Of a stretch of DNA of 34,823 bases, positions 1-34,823 are shown piece by piece. The notes under the pieces are model-generated. The model was given only the letters and a program-made list of their open reading frames with translations. It did not search any database and was not told where the DNA came from. Source of the stretch: a virus. The stretch lies in the IMG/VR virus record IMGVR_UViG_3300035209_000051, positions 1 through 34,823 of that record; one strand, given 5' to 3'. Every line of letters starts with the position of its first letter. Positions within the stretch are counted from its first letter, which is position 1. The translations under genes were made by a program, and so were the position numbers.

Positions 1-50
1 TAATCGCAGTTGCAATCCGAGCGCGAAAAACCGAACCCGGACGAAGAAAC
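1..50 (-). repeat. DGR variable repeat of target 1, haplotype B (partial)
   Basis: This is the 5' 50 bases of the variable repeat of target gene 1, cut by the window edge. It aligns without gaps to the template repeat at 34038-34118. Every difference from the template is at a template adenine: AGG to GGG, AGT to GGT, AAC to CGC, AAT to GAT, and two TAC to TGC. It is a different version of the copy at 34644-34724. Confidence 0.9.
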
Positions 51-149
51 CTTAAATACGGGGAACCATTTCTTCTGATCAATATCAAGACGGTCTGGCT
101 GCCATCCTCCGTTTATTGCCTTATTGATTATTCCAAGGCGCTCCAGGTT
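1..149. repeat. Left copy of the contig-end overlap (circularity evidence)
   Basis: Positions 24-149 are identical to 34698-34823. Positions 1-23 align to 34675-34697 with nine mismatches, all inside the DGR variable repeat. The gene crossing the join stays in frame: 431 bases on the left plus 115 on the right make 182 codons including the stop. This supports a circular or circularly permuted genome of about 34,674 bp rather than a duplicated gene. Confidence 0.88.
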
Positions 150-431
150 AAGTGCATCAGGGCTTAGACCAATATTCAGAAATTTAGCATTGAACTCCGC
201 TTCGGTTGTACCGCAGGCCTTGCAGCAGTCGTCGAATGATATCAAGCCCTTATAGTCGGGCATATCTTCATCAATGTAGTCTGCAACCAGGTCTTTGGCT
301 TTAGAGAGTAAGGTTACAGCTTCGGTGAGCTTGGTGTCCGCACCTGTTTTTTCTACTTCTTGCATCGCGCTGAAAATTGCTTTTTCAGCAGGAGTGTTTA
401 ACTCCAGGTTGTTTCTTCTTTGTGTTTTCAT
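1..431 (-). CDS. DGR target protein 1 (variable C-type-lectin-like protein), 5' part; continues at the window's right end
   Basis: This is the N-terminal part of a retroelement-diversified protein, cut by the left edge. It joins in frame to 34560-34674 if the molecule is circular, giving 181 residues. The N-terminal half is helical with acidic and lysine-rich stretches. Then come a central segment with Cys-Cys and a Cys-Gly pair, the linker INKAINGGWQPD, and the lectin-fold motif VSSSGFGFS at the start of the variable repeat. The start chosen is the ATG at 431, which begins MKTQRRNN. In-frame ATGs exist at 476, 488, 500 and 509, directly after the PcfJ stop codon, so the protein could be up to 26 residues longer. 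The second target gene has the same architecture. A role in receptor or ligand binding on the virion is inferred from known DGR targets. Confidence 0.85.
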   Translation of the reverse strand, partial: MKTQRRNNLELNTPAEKAIFSAMQEVEKTGADTKLTEAVTLLSKAKDLVADYIDEDMPDYKGLISFDDCCKACGTTEAEFNAKFLNIGLSPDALNLERLGIINKAINGGWQPDRLDIDQKKWFPVFKVSSSGFGFSRSDCNCD

Positions 432-531: not shown

Positions 532-1866
532 TTAAACTGCTATTCTTTCCATTATAGTGACATCCGCGCGAGGTGTATTTAGAGTTACTTTCTTTGATAG
601 GTTCTTAGCCTTTCTAAAGAGCTGTATGTTAGCTTCAATAACCTTTCGTATATTGTCGTATTCCTGAGGAGTTGAATTATGATCCCCCCTGATCTGAATT
701 ACCCGGAAGTCGGAGAGAGATAGCTCTATTGTTCCTATTCTCTTTTCACCCTTTCTGGCCGATAGTATTAAAGACTCCTTTCTTGCGTAATATTCATTTG
801 CAAAAACGCAATGATGCAATTTCTCTCCCTCAATAACATATTCGTTAACATCGTCCAGAACAACTATAGATATATTACCATCCGTCAGGCTTATCCCGAA
901 ATACCTGTCTTTTGCCTTTTTGAATTTTACGTTTGATTCGGCAATCTTTTTCTGCCGGAGCTCCATGGCTAATTTTTTCTCAATCCGTTGCTTTCGCCTT
1001 GAAAGCATTTCATGATCAGCCTTGAGTTCCTCGGGGCATATATAGAATGGATTATTGAGGTCCTTCTCAAAATACTTCAACAGTTCCAACTGGTCAAACC
1101 ATATGCTTGCATCTTTCACGATGTAATTATTCCGGATACAGATCCTGATTGATGGCCAAAAGTTTTGTACTTTATATCCGTGATAGCCCGCAAGCGCTTT
1201 AAGTAACTCGTACTGACGCGCCTTCAGAAGAGTTTCTGCCATGGGACTCGAAAGTATCTGGGAGAATAAGAAGGCAGGGTGTAGCGTGTGAAATGCTCCG
1301 CGAAAGCCATTTCTTCTGATCTCCTTCAGGAATTTACGTTCGGGATAAAAAGCCCCATAGATGTAGTAATTATCCCTGTTTTTACGAATCTCCATTAAAT
1401 ACCCCCTGCAATATTGGCGCATATATGGACTAAAAAAGCCAGCCCTCACAGTGTGCTTCCCCTTTGCGTTTATCCAGTGCTGGCATATCTCATCAAATTC
1501 TATCTTTCTTTTCTTCCCTACCTTACAAAATCTCGAACACTGAAAATACCTCAGTACCTGAAACTCTTCAAATACTATGGCAGTATAGAAGATCTCGCTA
1601 CTACGTTCCGTTCTCTTATTATTTGGGAGGGTGATCAGCGTGGTGCCACACTTCGGGCACATCTCTTCAAGAATATGGTCAAGCGGAATCCTATCATTAA
1701 CATCCCAGGAATGCCCACATTCCAGGCATGTGTTTTTCTTCTTTGTTTTGTAAACATAATGCTTGAACAATTTTTCTCCGGCCCATTTCTTCTGCAGGGC
1801 TGTTAATCCCCTAAGCTTCCTGCTAAGAAGATCAACTCGTATTTGAACTTTAGTTTTTGGCTTCAT
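532..1866 (-). CDS. PcfJ-like protein with N-terminal zinc ribbon
   Basis: This 444-residue protein has two CxxC pairs at Cys47/Cys50 and Cys70/Cys73, consistent with a zinc ribbon. A basic, charged middle follows. The C-terminal region, from about residue 350, shows the PcfJ pattern: GEKLHHCVFANEYY, then SARKGEKRIGTIEL, then QIRGDHN. PcfJ was named from the enterococcal plasmid pCF10 and is widespread in Bacteroidetes phages and mobile elements; its biochemical role is not settled. The gene lies one base downstream of the PcfK-like gene, so the two are probably co-translated. It sits between terminase and the DGR cassette. The family assignment is from motif recognition, and no function is claimed. 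Confidence 0.8.
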   Translation of the reverse strand: MKPKTKVQIRVDLLSRKLRGLTALQKKWAGEKLFKHYVYKTKKKNTCLECGHSWDVNDRIPLDHILEEMCPKCGTTLITLPNNKRTERSSEIFYTAIVFEEFQVLRYFQCSRFCKVGKKRKIEFDEICQHWINAKGKHTVRAGFFSPYMRQYCRGYLMEIRKNRDNYYIYGAFYPERKFLKEIRRNGFRGAFHTLHPAFLFSQILSSPMAETLLKARQYELLKALAGYHGYKVQNFWPSIRICIRNNYIVKDASIWFDQLELLKYFEKDLNNPFYICPEELKADHEMLSRRKQRIEKKLAMELRQKKIAESNVKFKKAKDRYFGISLTDGNISIVVLDDVNEYVIEGEKLHHCVFANEYYARKESLILSARKGEKRIGTIELSLSDFRVIQIRGDHNSTPQEYDNIRKVIEANIQLFRKAKNLSKKVTLNTPRADVTIMERIAV

Positions 1867-1867
1867 A

Positions 1868-2347
1868 TCAAAAGAGCGTTGATTGGATCATAGCTACTCC
1901 CTCTTTCGACTCAGTTTTTTTTGTTTTTTTATCAGCTTCAACGGCTTTCAGTTTCTCTTGTTTCTTCTTATCCTTTGCTTCTTTACGATCCTGTTGTTTC
2001 CTTAATTCTGTGAGCTGATCTTTCTCAAATTCCTTTTTAGCTTTCTCCCGGGCTTCGCTTTTGTCTTCCTCTGTGAGTTCAATTTTGTGATTGATTACAA
2101 CCCGTCCGGAGTTTACCTTTCCTACTTCAATTTTGTCTTCATCGTAATAATGAAGAGCCATTGAATAGATCTCATCGTCGGCAAAGCCATTGCAACCGCT
2201 TTTTTGAACAGTATTGAGAATGTAGGTTACACATTCGTCAATGTTCTTATTCGGTTTTTTGAGAGTTTCGGCAAAAAGTGGATCCCTGTCGGCCACATCA
2301 TTCAGATGATCACTGATCACCTTTTTGAAATTTTTTGTGCTTTCCAT
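1868..2347 (-). CDS. PcfK-like protein
   Basis: This 159-residue protein has an N-terminal half that fits the PcfK family: an early helix, FAETLKKPNKNIDECVTYI, and then the characteristic MALHYYDEDKIEVGK segment. The C-terminal third is a long, very Lys/Glu-rich helix (about residues 90-150), probably a coiled coil or nucleic-acid/protein-binding tail, ending QSTLF. It is followed one base later by the PcfJ-like gene, the pairing usually seen for these families. It follows the terminase large subunit and an 81-residue gene. The molecular function of PcfK is unknown. Confidence 0.8.
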   Translation of the reverse strand: MESTKNFKKVISDHLNDVADRDPLFAETLKKPNKNIDECVTYILNTVQKSGCNGFADDEIYSMALHYYDEDKIEVGKVNSGRVVINHKIELTEEDKSEAREKAKKEFEKDQLTELRKQQDRKEAKDKKKQEKLKAVEADKKTKKTESKEGVAMIQSTLF

Positions 2348-2366
2348 TTATCGTTAGGTTTATTGG

Positions 2367-2612
2367 TTACTTATTGATTCTCCTCCTGAAGGATTCATAA
2401 TTTTCATATCTGTAGATCCCAACATATTTGAAGTACTCATCATTCAGGTCATTGAAAACATCTTCCTTTCTTGTGTCGCTGCATGTTTTGCATCTTTCTT
2501 TAAACTCAGCCCAGAATACTTCAATGAACCCATTCTTTTTTCGTAGGGAAAGAATAACGCGTCCCGGGAAGAGCTTGCGTTTAATCGTCGGAGGGGAGTA
2601 CTTCATTTTCAT
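2367..2612 (-). CDS. Hypothetical small basic protein
   Basis: This is an 81-residue protein without a recognised family. It is rich in Lys/Arg with many aromatic residues, and contains one close cysteine pair (CKTCS). Its start overlaps the terminase large-subunit stop by four bases, so it is probably translationally coupled to terminase. This tight coupling and the absence of any conflicting gene support it as real. A packaging-related accessory role is possible only from position. Confidence 0.65.
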   Translation of the reverse strand: MKMKYSPPTIKRKLFPGRVILSLRKKNGFIEVFWAEFKERCKTCSDTRKEDVFNDLNDEYFKYVGIYRYENYESFRRRINK

Positions 2613-4285
2613 AGGAATCGCAGGTCGTGATCTTTATAAATTTCTTTGTTTTCATTTCCAACCGTCAATGTTATATATTCGCCAATGGCCGTAATCGCGG
2701 CAATCGGGCCGTCGATCTTCTCCCGGCTTCGCTTTTTGTCTGGCTTATAGTTGTCATTTGAATCCGAAATGATAACCACATTGCCCATCATCCACCGCAT
2801 AACGGGGTTATTGAAGTGCTCCAGCTGGCCGGAAGTGATCAGCTTTTCAAATTCTTTCGTGGGAGCGCTCATGTTTTTAATATTTTGCATGTACGGATCC
2901 AGTCGCTGTATAGGGAATCCGCCCTTCTGAATGTTCTGTATAATCCCATGATGAGCCATATAAGGGTCATAAGCCAAGCCTTCAACCTTAAACTCTTTAA
3001 GAATTTCAAGAATATCAGAGCTCAGCTGATCATTGTCGATGATCGACCCGGGAGTAGAAAAGACATGACCCTGTTTTACCCATAATGCATAATCAACCCG
3101 GTCCTCTTTCTCTTTGATTTTATCCTCCGGGATCCAGAAGAAAAGCTGGATGGCCGGATGTCCATTTATATCCGGGAAAAATAGAGCGAGTGCGTTTAGA
3201 TCTATGTGCGAAGCAAGGTCAAGACCCGCGTAACAGGTTCTTTTTTTAAGATCATCGGGCTTAAGTCCGTGGGAACAAGCTTTCCACTTCTCGTCAGGGA
3301 TCCAGACGGTGGGAGCATCAACCCACAGGTTAAGATTCTTTGTTTTAAAAGCGACCTCTTTGGTTCTGCTATTAATTGCGCCTTTGAACTCATCCTGGAA
3401 TCTGGCAGGGTTCACCGATATCCCCCAGTTTGGATTTGCTTTTCTCCACACATCAGGATCCTTCCAGTCGTCTTCCTCGTCGAGGGTGTAAATTATAGCG
3501 AATGTATCATCCTGAATCTTTATTCCACGGAGGATCTCTATGCAGAGATTCCTGTAATCGAAACACGGTAGGGTTTTATCTCTTCCGGCAGTGGTGATGA
3601 TAAAGATAAGCGGCTGCCTCCTGTTTACGGTTGCCGACTGAATGTTCTCAAATACAACATTGTTCTTCCAGGAGAAAACGTGGTACTCATCTATGATGGC
3701 GCCATGCGGATTTATCCCCTCCATACTTTCTGAGTCTCTGCCAAGCGGCTCCATCTTGCTCCCGGATGATAGGATACTTATGTTATTTGTGAGGCACCTT
3801 GCTCTTCTTGCTAGCGATGGGCTTTTTTCTATCATCCTTTTTGCCTTGTCGAAACAGATGTGAGCTTGCTTCTCTACCGTGGCCGCGCAATAGATCTCCG
3901 CTTCCTGCTCTCCGTCCAAGAACAGAAGATAAGCTGCAACTACTGCGGCGAATGTCGTTTTGCCGTTTTTCTTTGGGAGCTCAATATATGAGTAGTTAAA
4001 TCTACGTGTACCGTCTTTTTTGTACCAGCCGAATATCAAGTATGCGATGGCGGCTTCCCATGGTTCCGGCTCAAAGGGAATCCATTTCCGCTTATCCGGA
4101 GAGTGCTTTATGATGGTACAGAAATCAAAAAACCTTTCCGCAGCTTTCTTATCGAAATACCAGCCATTTTCAGGAGCATGAAGAAGATCCTTCTTGTGTC
4201 TCTCAAAGGTCAGCCGGGTCGTTTTACTCAGGACGATCTTCCCGGAGAGGGCATCAGCGATATATTTTTCAGCCTGGCGAATCAT
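2609..4285 (-). CDS. terL: Terminase large subunit
   Basis: This is the DNA-packaging motor ATPase and nuclease, 558 residues and full length for the HK97-type (Terminase_1) family. The ATPase domain has a Walker A-like LPKKNGKTT at about residues 103-111 and Walker B AIIDE at about 196-200, followed by a coupling segment FIITTAG. The C-terminal RNase H-like nuclease begins with YAGLDLASHIDLNAL (Asp356), with further acidic candidates in GLAYDPYM and KIDGPIAAI. The start overlaps the upstream 64-residue gene by four bases. It acts on the procapsid portal encoded at 31201-32439 together with the small subunit at 4466-4942. Confidence 0.95.
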   Translation of the reverse strand: MIRQAEKYIADALSGKIVLSKTTRLTFERHKKDLLHAPENGWYFDKKAAERFFDFCTIIKHSPDKRKWIPFEPEPWEAAIAYLIFGWYKKDGTRRFNYSYIELPKKNGKTTFAAVVAAYLLFLDGEQEAEIYCAATVEKQAHICFDKAKRMIEKSPSLARRARCLTNNISILSSGSKMEPLGRDSESMEGINPHGAIIDEYHVFSWKNNVVFENIQSATVNRRQPLIFIITTAGRDKTLPCFDYRNLCIEILRGIKIQDDTFAIIYTLDEEDDWKDPDVWRKANPNWGISVNPARFQDEFKGAINSRTKEVAFKTKNLNLWVDAPTVWIPDEKWKACSHGLKPDDLKKRTCYAGLDLASHIDLNALALFFPDINGHPAIQLFFWIPEDKIKEKEDRVDYALWVKQGHVFSTPGSIIDNDQLSSDILEILKEFKVEGLAYDPYMAHHGIIQNIQKGGFPIQRLDPYMQNIKNMSAPTKEFEKLITSGQLEHFNNPVMRWMMGNVVIISDSNDNYKPDKKRSREKIDGPIAAITAIGEYITLTVGNENKEIYKDHDLRFL

Positions 4286-25540: not shown

Positions 25541-25972
25541 TTACGGGGTTACTCCAAAGGTTACAGTTCCTTTCTTGGCCTTCATGGATCCTGACCAGGT
25601 TGCCTTCTCTTTCTTCGATCCGGCATCCTCGCTCCAGTCCCTGAGTGTTGCAGTTCCGGAGACAATCTTTTCACCCGATATGAACCTTCCGTAAACGAAT
25701 GCTACTTCAGCTCCGGCTGCCGTAGCTTCACGGAGAGTTTCGTAATCTTCGTAAGTTGCGGTTTCACCTGAGTCTCTCTCTATTGCCTTACCGGCAATAG
25801 ACATCTCGGCATCGAAATCAATAAAGTCGTCTGTGGGCACACCGGCGTTTGCTTTAAGCAATACCTCGTCGAAATTGGGCTTGATCTTAAGACCGGTTGT
25901 TTCAAGACCAACTATCAGCTTGGTTCCCCATTTTACCGAGAGGAGATACCCGTAAACATTAGTTCTTGCCAT
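25541..25972 (-). CDS. Major tail tube protein, short paralogue
   Basis: This 143-residue protein begins MARTNVYGYLLSVKWGTKLI and has the beta-rich pattern of siphovirus tail tube subunits (KIKPNFDEVLLKANAG, then FIDFDAEMSIAGKAI). It is nearly identical to residues 1-70 and 175-238 of the neighbouring 241-residue paralogue but lacks its insert. It sits directly upstream of the tail chaperone gene. Confidence 0.8.
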   Translation of the reverse strand: MARTNVYGYLLSVKWGTKLIVGLETTGLKIKPNFDEVLLKANAGVPTDDFIDFDAEMSIAGKAIERDSGETATYEDYETLREATAAGAEVAFVYGRFISGEKIVSGTATLRDWSEDAGSKKEKATWSGSMKAKKGTVTFGVTP

Positions 25973-26003: not shown

Positions 26004-26729
26004 TTAATAGGTCCCGAATACCACTGTGCCTTTTTTGGCCTTCATGGATCCTGACCAGGTTGCCTTCTCTTTCTTCGATCCGGCATCCTCGCTCCAGTCC
26101 CTGAGTGTTGCAGTTCCGGAGACAATCTTTTCACCCGTTACAAATCTTCCATAAACAAATGCGATCTCAGCGCCTGCTGCAGTTGCTTCGCGAAGGGTTT
26201 CGTAATCATCCGAGGTGCCATCCTGGCCGGTAACTGTCCGTACAAAGGCGGCAGTCACCCCGGTTGAACCGGCTGCAAAAACAGGAGCGCTGACTGCGCC
26301 CGGGAGCTGCTTGGCAAACACAACAACGTTGGTTCCGGCCGTACCTCCTGCTGTCCACCCGGCATATACTCCAAGGCGGATCTTGTCTGCAACCTGTATG
26401 GCAGTATCACCGCTTGTCACGGCAATATTCACCGCAACGGCATTAAGTGTAATGGTTACGTTATTGCTTGCGGTGGCTCCGACTGTAACAGTAAGAGTGT
26501 CAACCTCGTCTTTTGGTATCTCAGCTGAGTCTCCTTCAATAGCCTTTCCGGCTATCGACATCTCTGCATCGAAATCAATAAAGTCATCCGTAGGAACGCC
26601 CCCGTTAGCCTTCAGACATACCTCTTCGAAATTGGGCTTTATCTTAAGGCCTGTGGTTTCGAGACCCGCGATTAATTTGGTTCCCCATTTGATTGAGAGG
26701 AGATACCCGTAAACATTAGTTCTTGCCAT
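26004..26729 (-). CDS. Major tail tube protein, long paralogue with inserted domain
   Basis: This 241-residue protein shares its first 70 and last 65 residues almost exactly with the 143-residue copy at 25541-25972. About 99 extra residues (roughly 71-173, DNA 26211-26519) form a Val/Thr/Ala-rich domain with TLTVTVGATASNNVTITLN and VTSGDTAIQVADKIRLG. Similar domains occur as insertions in phage structural proteins. The shared parts are also close at DNA level, including an identical stretch of about 100 bases. The longer copy could be a decorated tube subunit. Confidence 0.8.
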   Translation of the reverse strand: MARTNVYGYLLSIKWGTKLIAGLETTGLKIKPNFEEVCLKANGGVPTDDFIDFDAEMSIAGKAIEGDSAEIPKDEVDTLTVTVGATASNNVTITLNAVAVNIAVTSGDTAIQVADKIRLGVYAGWTAGGTAGTNVVVFAKQLPGAVSAPVFAAGSTGVTAAFVRTVTGQDGTSDDYETLREATAAGAEIAFVYGRFVTGEKIVSGTATLRDWSEDAGSKKEKATWSGSMKAKKGTVVFGTY

Positions 26730-30445: not shown

Positions 30446-31201
30446 TTACCTTTTAAAATTCTTCTGCTGACTTTCAATAAGCCTGGCCATCTCTTCTTTT
30501 GCCACTTCATCCCTTAGCATCTCTCTCACCTTGTCGGGATCTGTTTCCTTTATCTCCAGGTCCTTGCCGTCGAGCAGATCTAGCACATCGCGCACCCTCA
30601 GGTTTTCGATCTGGGAGAGACGCAGCTTAGGACTGAGCGAGCGCACAACATAATAGAGAGCTGCTGATGACTGATCGCGCATTGATTTTTTTAGTGCCTG
30701 AGGGTTACCTCCGATATTCACTACCGACCATTCATAAAGCTCCTGACCGGCGAAATAATAGGTCTCGTTTTCCATTCCTTTCGCTTCGAGGTTTGGTCCG
30801 TAATCACCAGCTCCCACTTCACCAAAGCCAACACTGGCAGCATTGAGTGTTCCAAGCAGAAGCTTGCGGAACACCTTATCGGCCTTAATATTTAGTGCAG
30901 CTTCCTCGAAATATGCTGCAGCAACTAAAACTCTCTGTCCGCTCTGATCCACAGCTCCGATATCCATGCTCTTGCCTATCACATCATCCGGCTCGGGAGG
31001 ATTGCACAGGTCGCCATAGAGATTATGCATGTAACCTACAATAGGATTGGCCTTGTAATTATCGAGCCTCCAGTTATCCTGGTTGAGTACCGTATTATAC
31101 CGGTCTCTTGTTGCCGTACTCAGTATAAAAGGGATTATCCTGGTCTCATTTGCATTACCAGGTATTTCGCGCACCTGTCCGAATGTGAGTAGTTTTGCCA
31201 T
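30446..31201 (-). CDS. HK97-type prohead protease
   Basis: This 251-residue serine protease belongs to the prohead maturation family. His59 in VGYMHNL and Ser123 in AASVGFGE are the likely catalytic residues. The N-terminal FILSTATRDRYNTVL is family-like and the helical C-terminal tail (about 200-251) is charged. It shares one base with the portal gene and precedes the capsid gene, the standard HK97 order. Confidence 0.88.
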   Translation of the reverse strand: MAKLLTFGQVREIPGNANETRIIPFILSTATRDRYNTVLNQDNWRLDNYKANPIVGYMHNLYGDLCNPPEPDDVIGKSMDIGAVDQSGQRVLVAAAYFEEAALNIKADKVFRKLLLGTLNAASVGFGEVGAGDYGPNLEAKGMENETYYFAGQELYEWSVVNIGGNPQALKKSMRDQSSAALYYVVRSLSPKLRLSQIENLRVRDVLDLLDGKDLEIKETDPDKVREMLRDEVAKEEMARLIESQQKNFKR

Positions 31202-32439
31202 TATTTCGGTGGATTATTATTATCTGGAGGTTGTACCTGTGTCTTGCTTCCGGTTAAGAACTTAGGATCGAGCGGTTCATCCAGGCCGGGAAGTGGAGCC
31301 CTGTCTTCCATATCGCGGGCTTCATTCCTTGTTATTATGCCTGTTGATACCTGAATCTGCTCTACTTCAGCTCTTGTTTTTGAATCTGCCCTGAGCAGAT
31401 CTGCCATGTTATAGCGGATCTGGATCAGGCCACGGTCCTTCTTGCTTACAAGTTTTCTTTCAAGCTCACTTTCCTGTCCGGAGAGTGTTGGCCTGAGATT
31501 GTACTTTACCAGCTGCAGATCCTGCTGCTCGCCGTTTGAGAATGTTGCCCTGGAGAGATCTCCTATGATCGAGGGCGGCATATTAAAAAAGCGTGCCACA
31601 TCCTGAAGCTGAAAAACTCTTGTTTCGATAAACTGTGCATCATTAGGAGGAATACCAAGCTGCTTATATTTCAATCCGTATTCCAGGATAGGGGTGGTGT
31701 GATCTCCGACAGCTCCACCGTAAAATTCTTCCCAGCGCTTTTTCCATTTCTTAAATACGCCGTCGTCGATATGGTTGTCTGTCTCCAGTACTCCCTTCAG
31801 GTTCCCGCCCTTCTGGAAAAAGTCTGCTCCGAATCTCTCAGCTGCAAGACCCAGTCCTATACCTTCCCTGGCAGCCGTTATCGGGCTTATTCCCGTGACG
31901 CCGTTTCTCGATAAGATCTTGAAATGTATAACCTCCCAATGGAAGAAGGTCCCGTTGATGCCCATATCCGGATCGTGGATATCATAGAAAGGCTCGCCGT
32001 TATAGAGCGTTACAATAACACACGAAGAATCGACAGGTATGAGATCGGTTGGATTACCGAAGGAATCGAATTTGATAACAGCATAAGAATTACCGTGAAG
32101 CTGGAGCCGGGCATTCATGAGCTCGATAAACGAATACCGGTGCATGAACTTGTTTGGAAACTGGAGCAGCTTGTAAATAGCTCCATCAGACAGATCCTCG
32201 CGCTTGTTGTTCGCCCTGCGGGTAACGCTTATCGGGAAGGAGGCCGGTTGCTCAGATAAGATCCTTACACATGAAAAAACTGCTGATAACTTGAGAGCTG
32301 AGAAGGAGTTTACGTCAATCCCTGCAGCTGATCCGGCTATAGAGTTGCCGAAAACCTTCTCATAATCAGTTGTTGGCATAAGGTAAGTACCCCTGCGGAT
32401 AACATGTGCTGCATTACGAAGCCGGTCCTGTAATTTCAT
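31201..32439 (-). CDS. Portal protein, HK97 type
   Basis: This 412-residue protein matches HK97-family portals: LSAVFSCVRILSEQPASFPI near the start, then LMNARLQLHGNSYAVIK, then HFKILSRNGVTGISPI, GVLETDNH and DVARFFNMPPSIIGDL. It is the first gene of the structural operon, after a 246-base gap that holds a terminator and a tandem repeat. The C-terminal end is Pro/Asn-rich. Confidence 0.92.
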   Translation of the reverse strand: MKLQDRLRNAAHVIRRGTYLMPTTDYEKVFGNSIAGSAAGIDVNSFSALKLSAVFSCVRILSEQPASFPISVTRRANNKREDLSDGAIYKLLQFPNKFMHRYSFIELMNARLQLHGNSYAVIKFDSFGNPTDLIPVDSSCVIVTLYNGEPFYDIHDPDMGINGTFFHWEVIHFKILSRNGVTGISPITAAREGIGLGLAAERFGADFFQKGGNLKGVLETDNHIDDGVFKKWKKRWEEFYGGAVGDHTTPILEYGLKYKQLGIPPNDAQFIETRVFQLQDVARFFNMPPSIIGDLSRATFSNGEQQDLQLVKYNLRPTLSGQESELERKLVSKKDRGLIQIRYNMADLLRADSKTRAEVEQIQVSTGIITRNEARDMEDRAPLPGLDEPLDPKFLTGSKTQVQPPDNNNPPK

Positions 32440-32484
32440 AAGCTTGAACTTCCCTACAAATTTCAGCGGATATTTTTTCCTGAT

Positions 32485-32528
32485 TATGGGACATTGTTGA
32501 CGAGTTTACGGGACATTGTTGACGAGTT
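32485..32528. repeat. 22-bp tandem repeat, two copies
   Basis: Two adjacent 22-base units, 32485-32506 and 32507-32528, differ at one base and contain GGGACATTGTTGACGAGTT. They lie between the DGR terminator and the portal start, so they could be operators for the structural operon. The TGTTGAC-containing tandem units also recall ends of IS21-type elements, but no transposase is present. Confidence 0.6.
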
Positions 32529-32568
32529 TTTTGGGAAGTATATCCAATCGGCAGTAAATGGACGGATG

Positions 32569-32602
32569 CAAAAACGAAAAAAACCGGTTTTAAGTCCGGT
32601 TT
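32569..32602 (-). terminator. Terminator of the DGR operon
   Basis: Minus-strand hairpin AAACCGG / CCGGTTT with an eight-base loop (32581-32602), followed by a T-rich run (TTTTCGTTTTT). It lies about 84 bases after the accessory gene. It should end the terminase-PcfJ-DGR transcript and separates it from the portal operon. The stretch 32440-32685 otherwise holds only the tandem repeat and no convincing gene. Confidence 0.75.
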
Positions 32603-32685
32603 CATCATCAAATTTGGCAGATTTTGTAATTTTCTGGCAATGCAAAATTTGTTAATTATCTGTAATTCAGCATAAAATAAAAATA

Positions 32686-32991
32686 TCAAGTGAACTGGAA
32701 GCTATTATTGTCTTCAATAATAGTTGCAACAAAAGGGAATTTATCCCTGGGAATCTGCTCGATAGCTTCAATCAAAAGACGTGAAGAAGTGAACAGAATA
32801 TGTTTCTCCTGGTTGATCGAGATCTGAAGATGAAGGCATTTCCCAGTACCCTTGTCTTTGAAAACTTTTGAATCTTCAATCTTAAAGTCATGAATCACGA
32901 TCTCTTTATTCAGGATCCTTGACATCTTGATCTTTTCTCCCTCAAATCCCCTGCTTGGAGGCTTGATATTAAACTGACTGAACCGGTTCAT
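32686..32991 (-). CDS. DGR-associated small protein (possible accessory factor; not Avd-like)
   Basis: This 101-residue protein's start overlaps the reverse transcriptase gene by 23 bases, so the two are translated together. It appears to be mainly beta strands: HDFKIEDSKVF, then KCLHLQISINQEKHILFTSS, then FPFVATIIEDNNSFQF, suggesting an OB-like or small barrel fold. The classical DGR accessory Avd is a four-helix, basic protein, so this is a different factor. A role in nucleic-acid binding during mutagenic retrohoming is inferred from position. An internal Met23 is an alternative start. Confidence 0.65.
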   Translation of the reverse strand: MNRFSQFNIKPPSRGFEGEKIKMSRILNKEIVIHDFKIEDSKVFKDKGTGKCLHLQISINQEKHILFTSSRLLIEAIEQIPRDKFPFVATIIEDNNSFQFT

Positions 32992-33937
32992 GAAGCAGTT
33001 TCTTAATTAAGTGTTTACTATTGCAATGCTTTGCCCATCCTTTGTAGGATGCTATAGATTGAGGATTAGCTCCTGATGCAATCTTTCGGGCGAAATTCTT
33101 CTTGATGCTCTTTCTAAGCCGGATATGAGAATGCCTGAAGACATATCCCACAAAATCAACTCCCCTGGCATCTACCGGGAAGACCTGGTAATTATCCTTT
33201 ACTTCAAGCTTCAGATTATCCCGGAGGTAGATCCTGATGTCAGCAAGTACCTGGTGCAGGTAAGATTTGCTGCCGGAGAGTATAACCATATCATCGGCAT
33301 ACCGAAAATAATATTTGACGCCTCCAATCTCTTTGATCCAATGGTCAAAATATGTAAGGTAAAAGTTAGCCAGGTACTGGCTCAGGTAGTTCCCGATGGG
33401 AAGTCCTTCAGCACTGTCGATAATTCCATCGAGCAGCTGCAGGAGATCATGGTCCTTGATCTTCTTCCGGAGAAGTCCCTTCAGTATATCATGGTCAACG
33501 TTCGGATAGAACTTCGTTATATCAAGCTTCAGGCAATACTGAGTGCCGGTCTGATCCCGGAGGGTATCCTTCAAGGATCTCATGGCCGCATGTATGCCGC
33601 GTTTTTTAATGCAACTGTAAGTATCGGCAGTGAATGTTGAAACGAATATCGGCTCCAGGATATTCATCACTGCATGATGAACGATCCGGTCCGGGTAATA
33701 TGGCAGTCTGAAAATTATTCTTTCTTTAGGTTCGTGGATTGTGAAGGTGGTATATACGGAGGTTTTGTAAGTCTTATTGATCAGCGCCTCCTGCAGATCC
33801 TTCAGGTTATTCTCCCTGTTCCTATCATGCTCCAGTACTCCCGGCTGATTAAGCTTACCCTCCCGGGCTATCTGATCAGCCAAGCGAAGATTTTCCAGGG
33901 TACAAATTTGCTGATATAAGTTATTTTTTCTTTTCAT
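32969..33937 (-). CDS. DGR reverse transcriptase
   Basis: This 322-residue enzyme carries out adenine-mutagenic reverse transcription of the template repeat RNA. The fingers begin at about residue 40. Motif A is CLKLDITKFYPNVD (Asp139), the DGR-type motif is IGNYLSQ (181-187, with SQ), the catalytic YADD is at 213-216, and the thumb has DFVGYVFRHSHIRLRKS. There is no maturase or endonuclease domain, and the length fits DGR enzymes rather than group II introns. It lies 100 bases downstream of the template repeat on the same strand. Confidence 0.95.
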   Translation of the reverse strand: MKRKNNLYQQICTLENLRLADQIAREGKLNQPGVLEHDRNRENNLKDLQEALINKTYKTSVYTTFTIHEPKERIIFRLPYYPDRIVHHAVMNILEPIFVSTFTADTYSCIKKRGIHAAMRSLKDTLRDQTGTQYCLKLDITKFYPNVDHDILKGLLRKKIKDHDLLQLLDGIIDSAEGLPIGNYLSQYLANFYLTYFDHWIKEIGGVKYYFRYADDMVILSGSKSYLHQVLADIRIYLRDNLKLEVKDNYQVFPVDARGVDFVGYVFRHSHIRLRKSIKKNFARKIASGANPQSIASYKGWAKHCNSKHLIKKLLHEPVQSV

Positions 33938-34037
33938 GCCTTTGCATTCAAAGGATCGCGTTCCCTTGTGAGTACCAGCGCTCCTGTTTTGTTAAGTTAT
34001 TTTTTGCCTTGTTGGCAGGGTCTAGGCTGCAGTGTGT

Positions 34038-34118
34038 GCATAGGTGCGAACCGACGTTCGTATTCGTATAATCGTAGTTGTAATTCGAGTTCGAAAAACT
34101 GAACCTGGACGAAGAAAC
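34038..34118 (-). repeat. DGR template repeat (TR), 81 bp
   Basis: The 81-base template reads, on the minus strand, GTTTCTTCG... to ...CACCTATGC. It carries 20 adenines, mostly in AAC/AAT and TAC/TAT codons. It matches the variable repeats at 34226-34306 and 34644-34724 without gaps, with substitutions at adenines. The last 18 bases (GTCGGTTCGCACCTATGC) correspond to the IMH*, differing from the targets' GTCGGTTCGCGCCTTTGC at two adenines. It lies between the second target gene (stop at 34154) and the reverse transcriptase. Confidence 0.95.
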
Positions 34119-34153
34119 TGACAGCTGCGGCAGCATACAACCTTACTTGTTAA

Positions 34154-34558
34154 TTACAATAACCATTTCTCATAATGCTCTTTGCACTTCTCCAGCGCCC
34201 ATAGGGCCTTTTCAGAGGAATCAGTGCAAAGGCGCGAACCGACGCTCGCAGACGAATAAACGGAGCTGCAATCCGAGCCCGAAAAACCGAACCCGGACGA
34301 AGAAACCCAGGGCCACGGGTAATATTTGACCTGATTAGAGTTCTTGTAATCTGGCGTCCATCCGTTGTTTATTGCCATAAGAAAAATGGCGCATAAGATC
34401 CCGGCTTTAAATTTCTCGCCAAGATCTCCGGGAAGCATTGAGAGATCCGGGATGGAGTTGATGTCAAAATTCAGATGCTTACACGCATCTTCAACTGATC
34501 CGATGGTCTTATAATCGAATGCAGCTTTCTTTTTTGTTTTCGATGATTTCGTTGTCAT
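34154..34558 (-). CDS. DGR target protein 2 (variable lectin-like protein)
   Basis: This 134-residue protein has a lysine-rich N-terminus, a short helical domain (SVEDACKHLNFDINSIPDL) and a C-terminal C-type-lectin-like domain. That domain starts with AINNGWTPDYKNSNQVKYYP, followed by the variable block after VSSSGFGFS and a conserved VGSRLC. It shares architecture with target 1, but the N-terminal region is much shorter and different. It starts one base after the target 1 stop, so the two are one transcript. DGR target domains bind diverse ligands, so a virion-surface binding role is inferred. Confidence 0.9.
   Translation of the reverse strand: MTTKSSKTKKKAAFDYKTIGSVEDACKHLNFDINSIPDLSMLPGDLGEKFKAGILCAIFLMAINNGWTPDYKNSNQVKYYPWPWVSSSGFGFSGSDCSSVYSSASVGSRLCTDSSEKALWALEKCKEHYEKWLL
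34226..34306 (-). repeat. DGR variable repeat of target 2 (VR1)
   Basis: This 81-base copy differs from the template at 16 positions, all of which are adenine in the template; 16 of 20 adenines are changed and none of the 61 other bases. Encoded changes include AAC to GGC, TAC to TCC, GAT to GTT and AAT to TCT. Confidence 0.95.
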
Positions 34559-34559
34559 T

Positions 34560-34823
34560 TTATTCTTCGGTATTGGTTATAAGAGCTTTCCAGAATTTCA
34601 AGAACTGTGTGGCTGAGTAATCAGACTGTGCCTCTGTTTCAAAGCAAAGGCGCGAACCGACGCTCGCATCCGTACAACCGTCGTAGCAAGTCGAGTACGA
34701 AAAACCGAACCCGGACGAAGAAACCTTAAATACGGGGAACCATTTCTTCTGATCAATATCAAGACGGTCTGGCTGCCATCCTCCGTTTATTGCCTTATTG
34801 ATTATTCCAAGGCGCTCCAGGTT
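34560..34823 (-). CDS. DGR target protein 1, 3' part (continuous with 1-431)
   Basis: This part encodes the lectin-like C-terminus. It continues from the linker INKAINGGWQPDRLDIDQKK through VSSSGFGFS, the variable block and SVGSRLCFETEAQSDYSATQ, ending in LITNTEE. The window's right edge repeats the sequence at 1-149, so the gene is complete only on the circular molecule. The stop codon is one base before the start of target gene 2. Confidence 0.88.
   Translation of the reverse strand, partial: NLERLGIINKAINGGWQPDRLDIDQKKWFPVFKVSSSGFGFSYSTCYDGCTDASVGSRLCFETEAQSDYSATQFLKFWKALITNTEE
34644..34724 (-). repeat. DGR variable repeat of target 1, haplotype A (VR2)
   Basis: This 81-base copy differs from the template at 14 positions, 13 of them adenines in the template and one T to G. 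It differs at nine positions from the other copy of the same repeat at 1-50. Confidence 0.95.
34675..34823. repeat. Right copy of the contig-end overlap
   Basis: Positions 34698-34823 are identical to 24-149. The preceding 23 bases match 1-23 except at nine variable-repeat positions. Removing one copy gives a circle of 34,674 bp. Confidence 0.88.

What the first reader, a model, noticed from the sequence alone, without database searches (positions are those of the whole stretch)
1..149. The two window ends are two haplotypes of the same DGR variable repeat
The first and last 149 bases align without gaps: 126 are identical and all nine mismatches lie within the variable repeat, eight at template adenines. 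The gene frame is preserved across the join (182 codons). The circular contig was probably cut where the assembly graph forked on DGR-generated variants. It thus carries direct evidence of recent diversification in the sampled population.
Basis: partly seen in the sequence, partly recalled or inferred. Interest (0 to 1): 0.9.

Follow-up and report, generated by a model that had tools for sequence, protein, structure and literature searches.

The report
Phage circle broken at hypervariable repeat
This sequence is a complete circular phage genome whose assembly stopped inside a gene that the phage's own mutating retroelement keeps rewriting, so the two ends show two versions of that gene; the retroelement is of a known kind, and the way it breaks the assembly is useful but not surprising.

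Summary
The two ends align over 149 bases without gaps; 140 (not 126) are identical, and 126 is the length of the unbroken identical run. All nine differences lie in the variable repeat (VR) of target gene 1, eight at template adenines (P about 1e-9), and all six affected codons change the amino acid. The circle reading holds: related phages carry terminase-...-portal-capsid in one piece, an order this window has only across the join. The cut is an assembly-graph fork: other closed contigs in the same collection overlap by exactly 127 bases, the window's shared run is 126, and two other contigs of this phage group also start exactly 126 bases before a site that varies at a VR. Recent tandem duplication and fixed terminal repeats are unlikely. 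Same-species contigs of the nearest relatives vary almost only in VRs (12/169 VR bases against 1/6607 others), so the retroelement family is active. Without reads, the number, abundance and age of the haplotypes are unknown; the minor one could rest on a single 150-base read. The biology is known (a phage diversity-generating retroelement, DGR). The usable point: such complete genomes are likely filed as linear fragments.

The parts
1..149 (-). left contig end: part of target gene 1 with VR1 haplotype A (first 50 bases of the VR) and 99 constant bases
   Evidence: aligns to 34675-34823 at 140/149
34675..34823 (-). right contig end: same stretch with VR1 haplotype B; last 126 bases identical to 24-149
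1..431 (-). target gene 1, 5' part from the ATG at 431; continues at 34674 after closing the circle
   Evidence: open frame across the join, 182 codons with stop
34560..34823 (-). target gene 1, 3' part (haplotype B)
34642..34724 (-). variable repeat VR1, haplotype B
   Evidence: 14 template-A mismatches, 2 others, to the TR
34154..34558 (-). target gene 2 (134 aa), PHROG 11581 of unknown function
34224..34306 (-). variable repeat VR2
   Evidence: 16 mismatches to TR, all at template A
34036..34118 (-). template repeat TR
   Evidence: partner of all three VR copies; adenines account for nearly all mismatches
32969..33937 (-). DGR reverse transcriptase (322 aa)
   Evidence: RVT_1 E 2e-19; IGNYLSQ and YADD motifs
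32686..32991 (-). 101-aa protein conserved next to RT, candidate accessory protein
   Evidence: homolog after RT in nearly all relatives
532..1866 (-). PcfJ-like protein, upstream neighbour of gene 1
   Evidence: PF14284 E 2e-33
2609..4285 (-). large terminase; adjacent to portal in relatives, hence evidence for the circle
   Evidence: TerL_nuclease E 2e-46; synteny
31201..32439 (-). portal protein; adjacent to terminase in relatives
   Evidence: Phage_portal E 9e-91; synteny

Best explanation
The window is one complete, circularly mapping genome (34,674 bases) of a temperate tailed phage, probably of Bacteroidota. It carries a diversity-generating retroelement with two tandem target genes, a template repeat and a reverse transcriptase. 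The RT copies the TR with errors at adenines and the copy replaces the VR of a target gene, so VR1 of gene 1 exists in more than one version in the sequenced DNA. In the assembly graph (k = 127) these versions form a fork that rejoins in the constant part of gene 1. The assembler entered the circle from a short stub of haplotype A, went round once, came through haplotype B and stopped at the rejoining point, leaving a 149-base imperfect overlap with a 126-base exact core. Shown: the overlap, the template-A pattern, the open frame, gene order across the join, and the k-mer-sized run with two replicates. Inferred: RT activity in this phage, haplotype frequencies, and the exact graph operation.
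For: Nine differences only in the VR, eight at template A, all non-synonymous. Exact run of 126; G026 and G040 in the same collection close with exactly 127, and G027 is a second imperfect closure (T7/T6 indel) with a 127-base suffix. Contig L010 shares exactly 126 bases with L007 before diverging eight bases from VR2, and L030 shares exactly 126 with L032 and L035 before diverging inside VR1. Two further contigs, L005 and L023, begin inside VR1. Gene order: L015, L008, L166, L004, L027 and L054 hold terminase, the 2367 homolog and portal in one contig, and L015 and L008 continue in the window's order on both sides. Same-species relatives vary mainly in VRs: 12/169 vs 1/6607, 20/242 vs 1/3750, 9/242 vs 0/5666, with no change in TR.
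Against: No reads are available. Closed controls overlap by 127, not 126; the one-base shortfall is shared by all three fork ends but its cause (removal of one edge, or node-based contig ends) is not established. Base 1 is not placed where a simple fork would put it unless another haplotype diverges at template site A52, which cannot be seen here. No same-species contig was found that would show further haplotypes.
Confidence: 0.88

Rival explanations
1. The two VR1 versions belong to two coexisting, nearly clonal strains (or samples combined before assembly) whose VRs diverged long ago. The fork is real but says nothing about recent diversification in this population.
For: Only two haplotypes are seen, and the 99 constant bases are too short to date the split. 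In relatives, different samples carry different VRs.
Against: Near-absence of changes outside VRs in same-species relatives means that VR differences arise much faster than others, so two VRs on one background are young on that scale. Absolute age stays unknown.
Confidence: 0.25
2. Gene 1 is recently duplicated in tandem; the two contig ends are two paralogous genes, and the assembler broke in their shared part.
For: Four relatives have three tandem target genes. A repeat of at least 126 bases would also break the graph.
Against: Among 81 paralog pairs in relatives the longest exact match in the constant flanks is 49 bases. The gene count after closing (two targets) is the common state (72 of 76).
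Confidence: 0.06
3. The phage has a linear genome with 149-base direct terminal repeats, one of which was altered by the DGR.
For: Tailed phages package linear DNA and some have direct terminal repeats.
Against: The outermost bases differ, the exact run is one short of the 127 seen in closed controls, the same 126 occurs at contig starts in relatives, and the ends lie inside a gene; gene order in relatives runs through the point.
Confidence: 0.03

Closest known systems
Phage DGRs with several target genes and one TR (nd4/nd12-like gut phages, PMC10743442; Quimbyviridae, PMC8008677)
   Same: One TR serves two target genes; VRs differ from TR and among near-identical genomes at adenines.
   Different: Targets here are short proteins (134 and 181 aa) with no detected C-type lectin or Ig domain and PHROG 11581 of unknown function; no Avd-like gene was recognised.
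Population VR polymorphism in metagenomic DGRs (Roux et al. 2021, PMC8144416)
   Same: VR-confined non-synonymous variation within populations; 70% of VR loci had SNVs from reads.
   Different: Here it is read from contig ends, without reads, and from only two haplotypes.
k-mer-length end overlaps of circular assemblies (Benler et al. 2021, PMC8008677)
   Same: End repeats as long as the assembly k-mer are a technical sign of a circular map.
   Different: The overlap is imperfect because the circle closes at a polymorphic site, so an exact-repeat test would miss it.

Membership tests
Diversity-generating retroelement (DGR) | Reverse transcriptase of DGR type ([LIV]GxxxSQ motif) | tested here: met
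   RVT_1 E 2e-19; IGNYLSQ, and the motif in 80/80 relatives. That this motif marks DGR RTs is from my own knowledge.
Diversity-generating retroelement (DGR) | Adjacent TR/VR pair with mismatches at template adenines | tested here: met
   VR2 16/16, VR1b 14/16, VR1a 7/7 mismatches at template A
Diversity-generating retroelement (DGR) | VR at the 3' end of a target gene | tested here: met
   both VRs lie in the C-terminal part of their genes
Diversity-generating retroelement (DGR) | VR diversifies while TR and flanks stay constant | tested here: met
   in same-species relatives; in the window only two VR1 states
Diversity-generating retroelement (DGR) | C-type-lectin-like VR domain | tested here: inconclusive
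   model of gene 2: VR region pLDDT below 50, no significant PDB match
Diversity-generating retroelement (DGR) | Accessory protein (Avd or similar) | tested here: inconclusive
   no Avd match among the proteins tested; conserved 101-aa protein next to RT with no significant fold match
Circular genome map (k-mer-overlap closure) | end overlap equal to the assembly k-mer | tested here: inconclusive
   126-base exact run vs 127 in closed controls; same 126 at L010 and L030. Fits a fork at k = 127 with an unexplained one-base shortfall.
Circular genome map (k-mer-overlap closure) | gene order continuous across the join in relatives | tested here: met
Circular genome map (k-mer-overlap closure) | reads span the join | not testable with these tools
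   no reads held
Phage with fixed direct terminal repeats | identical repeats at both ends | tested here: not met
   nine mismatches, all in the VR

The most novel reading that the evidence does not exclude
VR1 is so diverse in the sample that no haplotype holds a majority, so the assembler cut every branch there. Contig ends placed exactly k-1 bases from template-A sites would then be a general, read-free mark of active DGRs, and many complete DGR phages are filed as linear fragments.
Probability: 0.35. Interest if true: 0.5.

Novelty: new member of a known kind. Interest (0 to 1): 0.36.

Why it matters
It upgrades a record that an exact-repeat test would call linear to a complete phage genome, and shows that a DGR's variable repeat can break an assembly at a predictable distance. 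That gives archives of contigs, whose reads may be hard to reach, a simple test for active DGRs and a correction for completeness estimates. The underlying biology, VR polymorphism in phage populations, is already established.

Tried and rejected
A 30-base exact search for the constant part of gene 1 in IMG/VR found nothing, so no further haplotypes of this species could be collected. Single-sequence searches with PcfJ and portal were too narrow. Relatives cannot be drawn for a virus record. The contig start at base 1 lies two bases past template site A52, which would fit a second fork there, but adenine sites are too dense for this to mean anything. The starts of L067 and L026 do not fit the 127 rule against TR alone, and no same-species partner was available to test them. 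The imperfect end overlap of G025 is an 87%-identical repeat with scattered changes and no sign of a VR, and that of G016 is two TR copies; neither is a VR fork. A literature search for the assembler step that could explain 126 rather than 127 found no paper describing it. Fold comparison of target 2 gave only uncharacterised viral proteins. Terminal repeats and tandem duplication were considered and set aside (see rivals).

Full report
OBSERVATION. The first and last 149 bases of the 34,823-base window align without gaps; no other end-overlap length from 20 to 599 comes near. 140 bases are identical and nine differ, at window positions 1, 4, 7, 8, 11, 16, 17, 22 and 23. On the coding (minus) strand the first 50 window bases are the first 50 bases of a variable repeat whose template (TR, 34036-34118) lies nearby. 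Eight of nine differences face a template A and one faces a template T, where haplotype A keeps the template base. Chance of at least eight of nine on the 12 template-A columns is 8.7e-10. The 99 constant bases are identical. Gene 1 stays open across the join with either haplotype (182 codons with stop from the ATG at 431). The nine changes fall in six neighbouring codons and all change the residue.

ANATOMY. On the minus strand the cassette reads: target gene 1 (VR1), target gene 2 (VR2), TR, reverse transcriptase, a 101-aa protein. The RT matches RVT_1 and PHROG 1423 and carries IGNYLSQ, the motif form that I know from DGR reverse transcriptases; all 80 relatives have the same form. VR2 differs from TR at 16 adenines and nothing else; VR1 haplotype B at 14 adenines and two other bases, which lie at template position 43 and at the repeat's 3' edge. 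The same kind of cassette occurs in 80 IMG/VR relatives (RT 67-78% identical): of 76 with readable repeats, 72 have two targets and four have three.

IS THE GENOME A CIRCLE? In the window, terminase and PcfJ lie at the left end and portal, protease and capsid at the right end. In relatives L004, L006, L008, L015, L027, L054 and L164-L166 the terminase, its small neighbour, portal and later head genes lie in one unbroken contig, and L015 and L008 continue in the window's order on both sides. Closing the window through the 149-base overlap restores that order, with the DGR cassette between PcfJ and portal. Contig G006 (34,459 bases) is nearly the same size and is cut elsewhere, beside the 4466 homolog. 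The closed length is 34,674.

WHY IT WAS CUT THERE. Contigs G026 and G040 of the same collection overlap at their ends by exactly 127 bases, which fits an assembly k-mer of 127; G027 closes imperfectly at a T7/T6 polymorphism with a 127-base suffix. That end repeats of k-mer length are a technical sign of circular assembly is stated in PMC8008677. In the window the exact run is 126 and the base before it is the last differing site: the contig stops where haplotype B rejoins haplotype A. A small graph calculation confirms a single branching node starting at base 24. The same number recurs independently: contig L010 (3300050023_000073) is identical to L007 for its first 126 bases and differs at base 127, eight bases before the matched VR2; contig L030 (3300025087_000372) is identical to L032 and L035 for 126 bases and first differs at base 127, inside VR1. 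Two more contigs (L005, L023) begin inside VR1. Why forks give 126 and clean circles 127 is not settled; removal of one edge when a weak branch is disconnected would do it, but I found no text in the library to confirm it.

IS THE DGR ACTIVE? In the window only two states of VR1 are seen. In the nearest relative species (L005-L010) contigs nearly identical elsewhere differ in VRs: L008/L010 12 of 169 VR bases, all at template A, against 1 of 6607; L007/L008 20 of 242 against 1 of 3750; L008/L009 9 of 242 against 0 of 5666; TR unchanged. L030/L032 differ at 9 of 159 VR bases, all at template A, but also at 9 of 1925 others. This is good evidence that the family's DGR works. For the sampled population itself it is indirect: the haplotype A stub is 149 bases, about one read, and its frequency is unknown.

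RIVALS. A tandem duplicate of gene 1 would need at least 126 identical bases between paralogs; among 81 paralog pairs in relatives the longest exact match in the constant flank is 49. Fixed terminal repeats are contradicted by the mismatches, by the k-mer-sized run and by its recurrence at other loci. Two coexisting near-clonal strains cannot be separated from diversification in place without reads; this rival concerns the age of the variants, not the circle or the fork.

TARGETS. Both targets match PHROG 11581 (unknown function) and no Pfam family. A model of gene 2 is confident in its helices but below pLDDT 50 over the VR; it resembles only uncharacterised viral proteins. From the general pattern of phage DGR targets (PMC8144416) a host-recognition role is likely but untested here.

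VERDICT. It is a complete, probably temperate phage (two tyrosine recombinases) with a known type of retroelement. A Bacteroidota host is suggested by the only close terminase match in bacterial genomes, a 6.5-kb contig of a Bacteroidetes MAG at 63% identity that also carries two target homologs. The most useful consequence is practical: such forks hide complete genomes and mark active DGRs.

Noticed in passing
window 32686-32991 (-): A 101-aa protein overlapping the RT gene end by 23 bases, with a homolog directly after RT in nearly all 80 relatives (36-71% identity in the 31 aligned). No Pfam, NCBIfam or PDB sequence match; confident model (pLDDT 90), mostly strands, with only non-significant fold matches that include OB-type nucleic-acid-binding proteins such as RPA. 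Candidate DGR accessory protein where no Avd was recognised.
   Followed up: partly
window 532-4285 and 31201-34823: The DGR cassette lies between PcfJ and portal; in relatives such as L008 and L015 it lies between the 4466 homolog and the large terminase. The cassette seems to have moved as a unit.
   Followed up: partly
L064:6262-6609: A target-gene homolog sits after the terminase, apart from the RT, in a relative; possibly a remote DGR target.
   Followed up: no
L089 / L090 (ends of contig IMGVR_UViG_3300030943_000011, 65,738 bases): The two contig ends each carry a copy of the TR sharing a 113-base exact stretch, with diverging sequence after it: possibly two DGR cassettes or a duplicated TR.
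   Followed up: partly
window 25541-25972 and 26004-26729: Two tandem related genes of unknown function in the structural region (80-89% identical DNA blocks), the second with an insert of about 100 residues.
   Followed up: no
window 1-50, 34224-34306: At the 12 template-A sites haplotype A of VR1 agrees with VR2 at 8 and with haplotype B at 4; chance, selection or exchange between VRs was not tested.
   Followed up: no
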